In this document: positions 21,796 to 29,500 of the stretch, in pieces
Numbering within the stretch: position 1 is the stretch's first letter
Layout: the number at the start of each line of letters is the position of its first letter
Assembly: GCA_938083445.1 (NCBI GenBank)
Contig: CALKCP010000003.1
Coordinates: 1 to 64,000 of the forward strand
Source: an uncultured Ulvibacter sp.
GTDB lineage: Bacteria > Bacteroidota > Bacteroidia > Flavobacteriales > Flavobacteriaceae
Length of the DNA: 64,000 bases
Reading direction: 5' to 3'
The notes under the pieces: generated by a model
Told to the model about the DNA's origin: nothing
Databases searched by the model: none
What the model saw: only the letters and a program-made list of their open reading frames with translations
Translations under genes and position numbers: made by a program

Positions 21796-22863
21796 TTAAT
21801 TTGGATTTTGAAAATCAGGATTACTAAGAAAGCTTGGGTCTGATAGAGACAGCAGAAATGCCTTTAAATCTTCTTTGTCGGTCTCAATTAGTTGAATCCC
21901 TCCTTGTGCAATTGTTTTCATCAAGGGATCAATGGTTGGAGAAAAAACCAAGCCCTCACTATAATGGTCGATGACCTCATCTAAGGTGTTAAACCTACCG
22001 TCGTGCATATAAGGAGCCGAATAGGCTAAATTCCGAAGGGAAGGAGATTTAAATAAGCCAAAATCTCGCGGGTCTCCAGTAAATTCGCCAAGGCCACGAT
22101 CCGTAAAGATTTCATCAAGACCATTGTTGTGGAAACTATTATCGGTCCAAAGAGGACTATTTGGACTGCCGTGACAGTGAAAACAATCTCCTCTCGACTC
22201 ATCCATAAAGACAGCCAAACCATTCGCTTCTGAAGGAGTTAAAGTGGCAGTGCCTTCAAGAGATTGATCAAATTTTGAATTCGCAGAAATTAACGTTCGC
22301 TCAAACTGCGCAATTGCCTTCGAGACAAGAGTTCGGTCGATAGTCGTTGTTCCAAAAGCTGCAGCGAACATGTCTGGATACACATTGGTGGCCTGCAAAC
22401 TAGCTACTGCATTCTCTGCAGTATTGTGCATCTCAATGGGGTCTTCTATTGGATCAAAAACCTGTTCTTCCATAGAACTGGACCTTCCATCCCAGAAAAA
22501 TTTTTGATTAAAGTTCCATGCCATATTAAATAAGGGCATGGCATTTCGCCTTCCTGCGATTCCATCGATACCGATGCTAAATCGCAACGGATCTGTAAAT
22601 GTAGTTTCTTGTCCGTGACAATTCGCACAAGCTTGGGTCCCGTCACCAGAAAGTATTGGATCGTAAAAGAGCTTCCGTCCCAAAGCAATTCCTTCAACAG
22701 TTTGCGGGTTCGAAACTGGGATAAGGGGATCCGATAATAACTCTTGAAATAACAGTGGCGTTTTTAATGGCGCTGGGGTGGCCGCATATTGAGACCCTTC
22801 ATCATCTGTACAAGAAAAGACTGTAAGAGAGATTAAGAGTCCAAATGCAAACCAATGAGTCAT
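21796..22863 (-). CDS. Di-haem cytochrome c peroxidase family protein (MauG/MbnH-like)
   Basis: Two CxxCH motifs (CANCH, CFHCH); family-typical APYMHDGRFNTLDEVIDHYSEG; lipobox-like TVFSC; 12 bp downstream of the MbnP-like gene. Confidence 0.9.
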   Translation of the reverse strand: MTHWFAFGLLISLTVFSCTDDEGSQYAATPAPLKTPLLFQELLSDPLIPVSNPQTVEGIALGRKLFYDPILSGDGTQACANCHGQETTFTDPLRFSIGIDGIAGRRNAMPLFNMAWNFNQKFFWDGRSSSMEEQVFDPIEDPIEMHNTAENAVASLQATNVYPDMFAAAFGTTTIDRTLVSKAIAQFERTLISANSKFDQSLEGTATLTPSEANGLAVFMDESRGDCFHCHGSPNSPLWTDNSFHNNGLDEIFTDRGLGEFTGDPRDFGLFKSPSLRNLAYSAPYMHDGRFNTLDEVIDHYSEGLVFSPTIDPLMKTIAQGGIQLIETDKEDLKAFLLSLSDPSFLSNPDFQNPN

Positions 22864-22875
22864 AATTTCTGCTAA

Positions 22876-23652
22876 TTATTGCGTTACTATGCCCAAACTA
22901 AAGGCACCTTGAGCACCATTTTCCGAAATCATTTTTTGTGCTTCGAAATTAGGCATGAGCGTGGCAAACAAAATATTTAAATTCCATGTGTTTGGGTTTT
23001 TAAACCATTCTGCTACGTTCATTTTTATCTCAATATCTGTGGTATTGGAAACAGTTACCTGTCCTAAATTTACTACGAAGGAGGTGTCCTCTAGCAATAA
23101 TGGTGTCACGTTCATATCGTTTGCTCTAATGGCGTGGTATGCATAGCCTATATCCATAGCTGCCGTATCTTTGTATTTTCCTTCTAAACGCATATAATGA
23201 TAACCACCACCTAGCATCGCTGGAACACCCCATGGCCCTTCCGCCGTCTGGTTTAGTTCAGGATACACACCGTCAATGTTGTCTTCATCATCAAACCCAA
23301 AGGTGAAAGATACCGCGTAGTCTCCCGGAGGTACTTGAACATTGGGCGTGTAACTTAAGTTCGTTCCTTCGCGAACATCAACAAGATTGAAATCTCCAGA
23401 GTCGTAAACCATTCCAGCAGCAGTGGTAAATGTTATGTCAGATATTAAATAAACAAGTTTAGATATCGTTTGTTCTGTTCCAAATGCATTGATGTATTGG
23501 GTGGTTTCGAAATCTGAATTTTGGATGTCATTTTCATCCCAATTGTGGGTAAAATTAAAGCCAACGCTTACGAGAGAAGCAGTATTGTCGTCGTCATTTT
23601 TACAACCCATTGTAGAAACTACAAGAAGTAAGAGTAAGGCAACTTTTTTCAT
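22876..23652 (-). CDS. MbnP-family (putative copper-binding) lipoprotein
   Basis: Lipobox VVSTMGC; VSVGFNFTHNW...YLISDITFTTAAG...NLVDVREGTNLSYT...PPGDYAVSFTFGFDDEDNIDG...GPWGVPAMLGGGYHYMRLEGKYKD...GYAYHAIR; coupled to a di-haem peroxidase gene. Confidence 0.85.
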   Translation of the reverse strand: MKKVALLLLLVVSTMGCKNDDDNTASLVSVGFNFTHNWDENDIQNSDFETTQYINAFGTEQTISKLVYLISDITFTTAAGMVYDSGDFNLVDVREGTNLSYTPNVQVPPGDYAVSFTFGFDDEDNIDGVYPELNQTAEGPWGVPAMLGGGYHYMRLEGKYKDTAAMDIGYAYHAIRANDMNVTPLLLEDTSFVVNLGQVTVSNTTDIEIKMNVAEWFKNPNTWNLNILFATLMPNFEAQKMISENGAQGAFSLGIVTQ

Positions 23653-28012: not shown

Positions 28013-28066
28013 AAGGAACGATGGCGTTTTATATGTCGTTAAAAAAAGATCAAAATTAGCATGACG

Positions 28067-29500
28067 TTATTGTTTTATTATTTTTTTTGTGACGCTGTTG
28101 TTTATTTTAATAAAATAGATGCCTTTAGAATAGGCTGAAATATCAATCGATACGCTTTCCGCATTTATATTTGTGTAACCAACTAATATTTTGCCCATTA
28201 CATCGCTAATAATTGCCGAATCTATAACTTGATTCTTTGCGCTGACAGTTATTTTAGTAGCGCCTGGGTTTGGATAGACCGATACGTTTTCAGACAAGGC
28301 TAAATCATTGATTCCTAAACTACTTGCTTTAACAATGTACAACCCTGGAACATAGGTTGGATCGCTAAAGACCAAACTAGAAATTACAATATTGCCACTT
28401 TCAAAATAGGGGTATACATTCCAAGCACCGTTATATCCTGCATTATTATTCGTTGTAAAAACGTCAAAGTATCCAGTTTCAACCATACTTCCACTGCTTA
28501 TATTGGAAATATCAATGACACGCAGACCTGCGGTATAATTTGCGAGGTAGAAGGAGTCGCCTTTCGTATATCCGTTGTGATCTGTCGCCGCGGTTGGTCC
28601 ACTATATTCAAAAGATAATTGTGGGTTGTCAAGGTCGTTTAGATTAAAGACCACGGTCCTTGTGTTAAAACCAAAATTAATTTCATCTATTTCATCTCCC
28701 AATAAGAAGTATGCATGATCTTCAGTAAGCCATCCTTGGTGGGTGTAGGCGATGCTGGAATAACTAATGGTTGAAATTCCTTGAGGGTTGGCTTTGTCTG
28801 TGATATCTACTATAACGACTTCATTTGTGTTACTGCCAATGTAAATTTCTCGACCTGTGTAATCTGAATCTGGTCCGTTGTAGGTTACTACTTGCCCATC
28901 ATGACTGTAAGAATCCAAAGAATATCCTCCCGCTGCGACAGGGTTTAAGGGGTCTTGAATGTCAACAAAATGAGGGCCTCCAGAATAGGTTGATGTTCCA
29001 ACACCATATGCATAGCCCTCTTGCTCATTGATAACAATATTATGTGCACCGCCAAAACCGTTATAGTGTGCATCTTCTGTAAAGATTTCAGGAGGGTTTG
29101 AAACGGACCTTAATCGGGTTAGATCGAATATTTGCATGCCATGTCCATTTGCTTCACTTACCACAAATGCATAATTGTTGTATACTTTTACGTCCCGCCA
29201 TAGACTTGAATTGGTATGTGTTGGCAGTTTACCTACATACAAAGGGTTTACTGGATCAGATATATCCACAAATGCAACACCGTTATCGAGGCCTAAAAGC
29301 GCATATTCTATACCGCTAACTGCATCGGTCCAACCCCAAGAATCGTTAGAATTATCGGCTCCGAAAGCAGTGCAAGGTGTAAAAGACTGTAAGTCATACC
29401 CATTGCAAGGATAGGTTCCAGCCATACCAGAAACACAGGGTGTTTGCGCTACTAATGCCGAAGTGAAAATTGACAGAACACAGAGTAAAATATTTTTCAT
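28067..29500 (-). CDS. Choice-of-anchor-B/LVIVD-repeat protein with T9SS type-A sorting domain (paralog 3)
   Basis: Same architecture; CTD VSVYPNPGATKITVS...GIYFIKINNSVTKKIIKQ. Confidence 0.9.
   Translation of the reverse strand: MKNILLCVLSIFTSALVAQTPCVSGMAGTYPCNGYDLQSFTPCTAFGADNSNDSWGWTDAVSGIEYALLGLDNGVAFVDISDPVNPLYVGKLPTHTNSSLWRDVKVYNNYAFVVSEANGHGMQIFDLTRLRSVSNPPEIFTEDAHYNGFGGAHNIVINEQEGYAYGVGTSTYSGGPHFVDIQDPLNPVAAGGYSLDSYSHDGQVVTYNGPDSDYTGREIYIGSNTNEVVIVDITDKANPQGISTISYSSIAYTHQGWLTEDHAYFLLGDEIDEINFGFNTRTVVFNLNDLDNPQLSFEYSGPTAATDHNGYTKGDSFYLANYTAGLRVIDISNISSGSMVETGYFDVFTTNNNAGYNGAWNVYPYFESGNIVISSLVFSDPTYVPGLYIVKASSLGINDLALSENVSVYPNPGATKITVSAKNQVIDSAIISDVMGKILVGYTNINAESVSIDISAYSKGIYFIKINNSVTKKIIKQ

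What the first reader, a model, noticed from the sequence alone, without database searches (positions are those of the whole stretch)
21796..29500. Six-gene locus linking an MbnP/MbnH-like pair to four secreted propeller-type proteins
Six consecutive minus-strand genes: three choice-of-anchor-B T9SS substrates, a seven-repeat lipoprotein, an MbnP-like lipoprotein, and a di-haem MauG/MbnH-like peroxidase. The last four are separated by only 8, 7 and 12 bp, so they probably form one transcript. Established: MbnH-type enzymes oxidise a Trp of their MbnP partner to kynurenine, creating a copper site. Inference: the surface propellers and lipoprotein act with MbnP in copper (or other metal) capture, or are further substrates of the peroxidase. 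This is the best candidate in the window for an under-described system.
Basis: partly seen in the sequence, partly recalled or inferred. Interest (0 to 1): 0.8.

Follow-up and report, generated by a model that had tools for sequence, protein, structure and literature searches.

The report
Flavobacterial surface metal-protein operon with MbnP/MbnH
Many marine Flavobacteriaceae carry a small operon of surface beta-propeller proteins that either keep a histidine pair of their own or travel with an MbnP/MbnH copper-site pair, never both, which suggests two interchangeable ways of making a metal site on the cell surface.

Summary
In detail: six minus-strand genes, three T9SS choice-of-anchor-B proteins (CAB), a seven-repeat propeller lipoprotein (LIPO), an MbnP-like lipoprotein and an MbnH/MauG-like di-haem enzyme, with 8, 7 and 12 bp between the last four. 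The link is real in Flavobacteriaceae. CAB-LIPO adjoin in 76 of 161 genomes drawn across the family. MbnP-MbnH follow LIPO in 51 of those 76, and all 47 window-type MbnP lie there. Outside the family CAB was not tied to MbnP in the 18 regions read.

New here:
(1) LIPO keeps an HxH motif in 58/58 loci without MbnP and lacks it in 117/117 with MbnP. The CAB tree needs three switches between the states (AU p=0.0098 against one).
(2) The window's MbnP has the MbnP fold but lacks the second Trp of WxW and the nearby Met. It keeps the first Trp (W141; Phe in 5 of 88) and gains an invariant His, so a Kyn/His/His site as in CorA is predicted.
(3) CAB has four invariant His at inner-strand starts of blades 3-6 of its predicted propeller.

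I read it as a surface metal, probably copper, system in which MbnP-MbnH replaces a His site of LIPO. Metal binding, kynurenine and copper regulation are untested.

The parts
28067..29500 (-). CAB1: secreted choice-of-anchor-B propeller with T9SS type A tail, 477 aa
   Evidence: TIGR04312 536 bits, TIGR04183 43 bits
26600..28012 (-). CAB2: same family, 470 aa
   Evidence: TIGR04312 526 bits, TIGR04183 35 bits
25093..26502 (-). CAB3: same family, 469 aa; AF2 model is a seven-bladed propeller plus tail domain
   Evidence: TIGR04312 568 bits; model pLDDT 88.3, pTM 0.78; best Foldseek PDB hit 5hrm, E 3e-11, TM 0.57
26044..26046 (-). CAB3 H153, first of four invariant His at inner-strand starts of blades 3-6
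   Evidence: no exception in 205 family and 21 other-family sequences; strand positions
25903..25905 (-). CAB3 H200 (blade 4)
25741..25743 (-). CAB3 H254 (blade 5)
25579..25581 (-). CAB3 H308 (blade 6)
23660..25084 (-). LIPO: seven-repeat propeller lipoprotein, 474 aa
   Evidence: lipobox C24; CylK-like propeller E 9e-33; adjacent to CAB in 76 of 161 genomes
24545..24553 (-). LIPO Q178-D-Q180, the place of the H-D-H motif of LIPO proteins without MbnP
   Evidence: HDH 58/58 without MbnP, 0/117 with MbnP
24392..24394 (-). LIPO H231, invariant in both states
   Evidence: 175/175
22876..23652 (-). MbnP-like lipoprotein, 258 aa
   Evidence: PF20243 91 bits; AF2 model (pLDDT 86.7) matches only MbnP 7l6g at E<0.001
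23230..23232 (-). MbnP W141, aligned with the first Trp of the canonical WxW motif; predicted kynurenine precursor
   Evidence: hhalign; W in 83/88, F in 5/88
23197..23199 (-). MbnP H152, invariant in window-type MbnP, K/R/Q in canonical MbnP
   Evidence: 88/88 against 0/24
23134..23136 (-). MbnP H173, equals the canonical conserved His
   Evidence: 88/88; canonical 24/24
21796..22863 (-). MbnH/MauG-like di-haem lipoprotein, 355 aa; two CxxCH, Y301, W124
   Evidence: PF03150 187 bits; best PDB 6e1c; haem motifs, W124 and Y301 87/87 in window-type MbnH
21655..21662 (-). TATCTTTG (-7 type element) upstream of sufA, start of the separate suf operon
   Evidence: TAnnTTTG before sufA in 37/41 loci

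Best explanation
The locus is a Flavobacteriaceae cell-surface metal-handling operon, most likely for copper, built on a CAB-LIPO pair. CAB proteins are secreted or lipid-anchored seven-bladed propellers whose four invariant axial His bind a metal (inferred). In one state LIPO carries its own His site (H154, H178, H180, H231). In the other, seen in the window, the HxH pair is absent and a downstream MbnP-MbnH pair supplies the site: MbnH oxidises W141 of MbnP to kynurenine, and kynurenine with H152 and H173 binds copper, as two His and kynurenine do in CorA (inferred by alignment). Shown here: gene order, linkage, residue patterns, mutual exclusion, repeated switching. Inferred: metal identity, kynurenine, physiological role.
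For: Linkage: CAB-LIPO adjacent in 76 of 161 family genomes; all 47 window-type MbnP of that sample, and 4 canonical ones, sit directly after LIPO. Reciprocity: LIPO HxH 58/58 without MbnP, 0/117 with MbnP; of 74 positions invariant in the first group only H178 and H180 drop to 0% in the second. A second sample of 60 loci, fetched after the pattern was seen, agreed without exception, and two loci chosen as lacking MbnP but without the motif turned out to carry a canonical MbnP. Switching: the LIPO tree splits the two states on one branch (SH-aLRT 97), while the CAB tree needs 3 changes and rejects one (AU p 0.0098), so LIPO type and MbnPH move together. MbnP fold: only 7l6g matches at E<0.001. 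MbnH has two CxxCH and the Tyr found in MauG/MbnH. CorA copper ligands are two His plus kynurenine (PMC3912023). CAB His ring. Four cassettes show no suf gene in the stretch read: L229, L230, L237, L238.
Against: No metal, kynurenine or expression data exist here. W141 is Phe in five genera whose MbnH is intact. The second Trp is lost in most and the Met in all window-type proteins. The His change in LIPO itself may have happened once, so the 58-against-117 count is not made of independent events; which state is older is not known. On thiL+sufB the single-switch tree is not formally rejected (AU p 0.072). No model coordinates could be read, so no ligand geometry was measured. L239 keeps an MbnP without CAB, LIPO or MbnH.
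Confidence: 0.5

Rival explanations
1. Neighbours by inheritance: the genes share an old syntenic block between thiL and suf and need not act together.
For: thiL and suf flank nearly all loci and are as conserved in order as the cassette. MbnP presence forms one side of one branch on the LIPO tree.
Against: LIPO residues differ with MbnP presence; LIPO type and MbnPH switch together against the CAB tree; cassettes are kept away from suf in L229, L230, L237, L238 and CAB-LIPO alone in L089 and L231; internal gaps are short and lack promoter elements.
Confidence: 0.15
2. MbnH makes protein-derived cofactors in the propellers (CAB or LIPO), as MauG does for methylamine dehydrogenase and as has been suggested for the copper-dependent methanethiol oxidase beside a mauG gene.
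For: Five genera have Phe at 141 of MbnP but an intact MbnH. CAB has invariant W55, W101, W360 and nearly invariant W57. mtoX-SCO1-mauG operons exist (PMC5739008).
Against: Those CAB Trps and the LIPO Trps are about as conserved in genera without MbnH, and no Trp is gained with MbnPH.
Confidence: 0.15
3. CAB is a metal-dependent propeller enzyme (hydrolase or oxidase) and LIPO/MbnP deliver its metal.
For: Four invariant His plus conserved Asp/Glu near the axis. Top Foldseek hit 5hrm is a phosphotriesterase of propeller fold.
Against: TM-score 0.57 and 15% identity with no significant sequence match; propellers match many unrelated propellers. Outside the family strong CAB genes lie without LIPO or MbnP.
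Confidence: 0.25
4. MbnH is an ordinary surface peroxidase for hydrogen peroxide and MbnP is its electron or docking partner.
For: CCP_MauG domain; conserved haem motifs.
Against: Tyr instead of the Met of classical bacterial cytochrome c peroxidases at the presumed axial place (own knowledge); pairing with MbnP.
Confidence: 0.08

Closest known systems
MbnP/MbnH pair (TIGR04052/TIGR04039; MbnP 7l6g and MbnH 6e1c of Methylosinus trichosporium)
   Same: Gene pair order, MbnP fold, first Trp of WxW, one conserved His, di-haem partner with two CxxCH and Tyr.
   Different: Second Trp and Met of the motif lost, new invariant His, no methanobactin genes recognised among the neighbours read, sits behind CAB-LIPO; MbnH clade apart on a long branch (100/100).
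CorA/CorB of Methylomicrobium album and MopE/SACCP (PMC3912023)
   Same: Copper site of kynurenine plus two His is what the window's MbnP is predicted to have; surface location; di-haem partner gene.
   Different: No CorA or MopE structure appeared among the listed Foldseek matches of the MbnP model; sequence kinship to CorA was not tested; CorA spacing is W-x-H.
mtoX-SCO1-mauG operon (copper-dependent methanethiol oxidase, PMC5739008)
   Same: A copper protein with conserved His beside a MauG-like gene.
   Different: The CAB proteins have no Pfam hit other than LVIVD repeats and the T9SS tail; no SCO1 gene recognised, and an MbnP instead.
Choice-of-anchor-B family (TIGR04312)
   Same: Full-length membership.
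   Different: No function known to me; the four-His ring and the tie to LIPO and MbnPH are described here.

Membership tests
MbnP (PF20243 / TIGR04052) | profile match | tested here: inconclusive
   PF20243 91 bits over cut-off 27; no NCBIfam model hit at E<=0.001
MbnP (PF20243 / TIGR04052) | MbnP fold | tested here: met
   7l6g chains are the only PDB matches at E<0.001
MbnP (PF20243 / TIGR04052) | WxW motif with Met two residues before it | tested here: not met
   24/24 canonical proteins have M-x-W-x-W; the window has G-P-W-G-V; 9 of 88 relatives keep WxW at that place
MbnP (PF20243 / TIGR04052) | kynurenine at the first Trp and bound copper | not testable with these tools
   needs mass spectrometry and metal analysis
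MbnH/MauG di-haem enzymes | two CxxCH and Tyr at the axial-ligand place | tested here: met
   C79-C82-H83, C227-C230-H231, Y301; 87/87
MbnH/MauG di-haem enzymes | TIGR04039 trusted cut-off | tested here: not met
   255 bits against 363; no member in 161 family genomes reaches it
Choice-of-anchor B (TIGR04312) | profile match above cut-off | tested here: met
   526-568 bits, cut-off 100
T9SS type A substrates | C-terminal sorting domain | tested here: met
   TIGR04183 in all three CABs
Methanobactin operon | mbnA/B/C beside MbnPH | not tested
   neighbours by ORF and profile are CAB, LIPO, suf and thiL; the genome was not searched for MbnB/C
CorA/MopE | kynurenine plus two His as copper ligands | tested here: inconclusive
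   W141, H152, H173 conserved; geometry not measured

The most novel reading that the evidence does not exclude
Two interchangeable designs of one surface metal site: a four-His site inside a propeller lipoprotein, or the same lipoprotein without the HxH pair plus an MbnP-MbnH pair that makes a kynurenine site, swapped as a block between lineages and serving a four-His propeller protein as client.
Probability: 0.4. Interest if true: 0.8.

Novelty: new variant of a known kind. Interest (0 to 1): 0.62.

Why it matters
MbnP/MbnH pairs are common outside methanotrophs, but what they serve there is unclear. Here a family-wide natural experiment, with repeated swaps of LIPO-HxH for LIPO plus MbnPH, points to partner and client proteins and to the residues to mutate. 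It also gives a functional lead for choice-of-anchor-B proteins, a common surface family of Bacteroidota for which I found no paper in the held library.

Tried and rejected
(1) Mutual dependence of CAB and MbnP in general: rejected; CAB in other families and in 25 of 76 CAB-LIPO loci has no MbnP.
(2) T9SS-tailed or multiple CABs as a sign of MbnPH (24/51 against 0/25): not used, because on the LIPO tree MbnPH presence is one side of one branch.
(3) Two independent arrivals of MbnPH in the same slot: the tree leans that way, but the AU test does not reject one clade (p 0.19).
(4) 'Window-type MbnP has lost the kynurenine Trp': my first reading, dropped when profile alignment and intermediate sequences (SWNWP-MLGGGYH) showed that the first Trp is kept.
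(5) Trp of CAB or LIPO tied to MbnH: none found.
(6) A shared upstream motif of CAB genes: the enriched TGCAAAAATA is best explained as the promoter of divergent thiL.
(7) Rfam: no match in 13000-38000.
(8) Papers: none in the held library name choice-of-anchor B; the MbnP structure paper is not held, so its WxW statement rests on own knowledge.

Full report
OBSERVATION. The six genes are present as described. The three CABs are full-length choice-of-anchor-B proteins with T9SS type A tails. LIPO has a lipobox and seven FGGS-type repeats; its family profile matches the CylK propeller. MbnP matches PF20243. MbnH is a CCP_MauG protein whose nearest solved relative is MbnH 6e1c. Both MbnP and MbnH have lipobox cysteines, C17 and C18.

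NEIGHBOURHOOD. A scan of one genome per species (85,488 species) found 44 loci with a related MbnP. All named hosts are Flavobacteriaceae or unclassified Bacteroidota, apart from one labelled Rokubacteria. In every locus with enough flank the order is thiL (divergent), CAB x1-5, LIPO, MbnP, MbnH, sufA, sufB and onwards. Because thiL and suf are conserved too, order alone does not prove a shared role. Upstream of sufA stands a TAnnTTTG element in 37 of 41 loci, rare before LIPO, MbnP and MbnH.

FAMILY SURVEY. In 161 genomes drawn across the family (160 genera) I searched CAB, window-type MbnP and LIPO and read the loci. CAB-LIPO are adjacent in 76. Window-type MbnP, 47 cases, always follows LIPO. 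Four more loci have a canonical MbnP there, with WxW. Twenty-five have CAB-LIPO alone. In the class-wide sample CAB is common (167 of 297 genomes above cut-off); the 18 regions read outside the family were not of this arrangement. One (L067) holds a canonical-type MbnPH pair some 5 kb from a weak CAB, without LIPO.

RECIPROCITY. Comparing CAB and LIPO between genera with and without MbnPH, no Trp was gained, but LIPO differed at two fixed His. In LIPO without MbnP, H154, H178, H180 and H231 are invariant (window numbering). With MbnP, H231 stays, H154 is H in about a third, and H178/H180 are never His. I then enlarged the survey to 371 genomes and read 60 further loci: 33 of 33 without MbnP have GHDH, 27 of 27 with MbnP do not (one of these, L239, has no LIPO). 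Two loci picked as lacking MbnP had no GHDH and proved to hold a canonical MbnP (L229, L230). All together 58/58 against 0/117, with LIPO identities down to 34-36%.

SWITCHES. On the LIPO tree the state without MbnP is one side of a branch (SH-aLRT 97). On the tree of the neighbouring CAB it needs three changes, and one clade is rejected (AU p 0.0098; G424, G339 and G399 are the exceptions). On thiL+sufB starred branches force three changes, though the AU test gives p 0.072. So LIPO and its MbnPH state have moved together, at least three times by the CAB tree, relative to CAB. Which state is ancestral is not settled, since LIPO has no outgroup here.

MBNP. The AF2 model (pLDDT 86.7) matches MbnP 7l6g and nothing else at E<0.001. 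Canonical MbnP of the same bacteria have M-x-W-x-W and a conserved His, 24 of 24. In the window type, 88 sequences, the first Trp is kept as W141 (83; Phe in 5), the second is Val in most and Trp in 9, the Met is gone, H152 is new and invariant, H173 equals the canonical His and is invariant. By own knowledge the first Trp of WxW becomes kynurenine in M. trichosporium MbnP and the copper ligands there are His and Met. CorA uses kynurenine and two His (PMC3912023). I therefore predict kynurenine-141, H152 and H173 as a CorA-like site, reached from an MbnP scaffold. In the five Phe genera another mechanism is needed.

MBNH. Two CxxCH, W124 and Y301 are invariant in 87 of 87 window-type proteins. 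The clade is well separated from canonical MbnH (100/100). The four canonical pairs in the same slot group with canonical pairs found elsewhere, but a single origin with the window type is not rejected (p 0.19).

CAB. The model is a seven-bladed propeller (pLDDT 88.3). H153, H200, H254 and H308 lie at the start of the innermost strand of blades 3 to 6 and have no exception in 205 family sequences and 21 from other families (a few near-copies may be counted twice between the two family sets). That is where metal sites of propellers lie, which is inference. The best fold match is phosphotriesterase 5hrm, without sequence support.

CONCLUSION. Its mechanism is plausible with a changed site. The most informative new fact is the exclusion between the LIPO HxH motif and MbnP. 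Metal, kynurenine and regulation remain to be tested.

Noticed in passing
own genome C10:10229-11942 (L003:10229-11942): A second MbnP-MbnH pair of canonical type (W-T-W-Q-S-G-Y), followed by a small helix-turn-helix-like protein, not near CAB.
   Followed up: partly
L239 (G541): An MbnP stands alone between sufA and thiL; CAB, LIPO and MbnH are gone.
   Followed up: no
L230 (G476) and L229 (G648): Canonical MbnP after LIPO without an adjacent MbnH (L230), or with a 177-aa ORF between them (L229).
   Followed up: no
window 19331-19765 and 15486-15938: Two small lipoprotein genes inside the suf operon, one without Pfam match and one with a META domain, conserved there in most of the 44 loci.
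   Followed up: partly
window 52774-56190: A 1138-aa ORF with no Pfam match.
   Followed up: no
upstream of the first CAB in 40 loci: The usual TAnnTTTG element is found in only 9 of 40, so the CAB operon may use another promoter type.
   Followed up: partly
L045, L005, L009 and other loci: CAB comes in three anchor forms in one slot: lipoprotein of about 415 aa, T9SS of about 470 aa, and about 640 aa with an extra stretch and a T9SS tail.
   Followed up: partly
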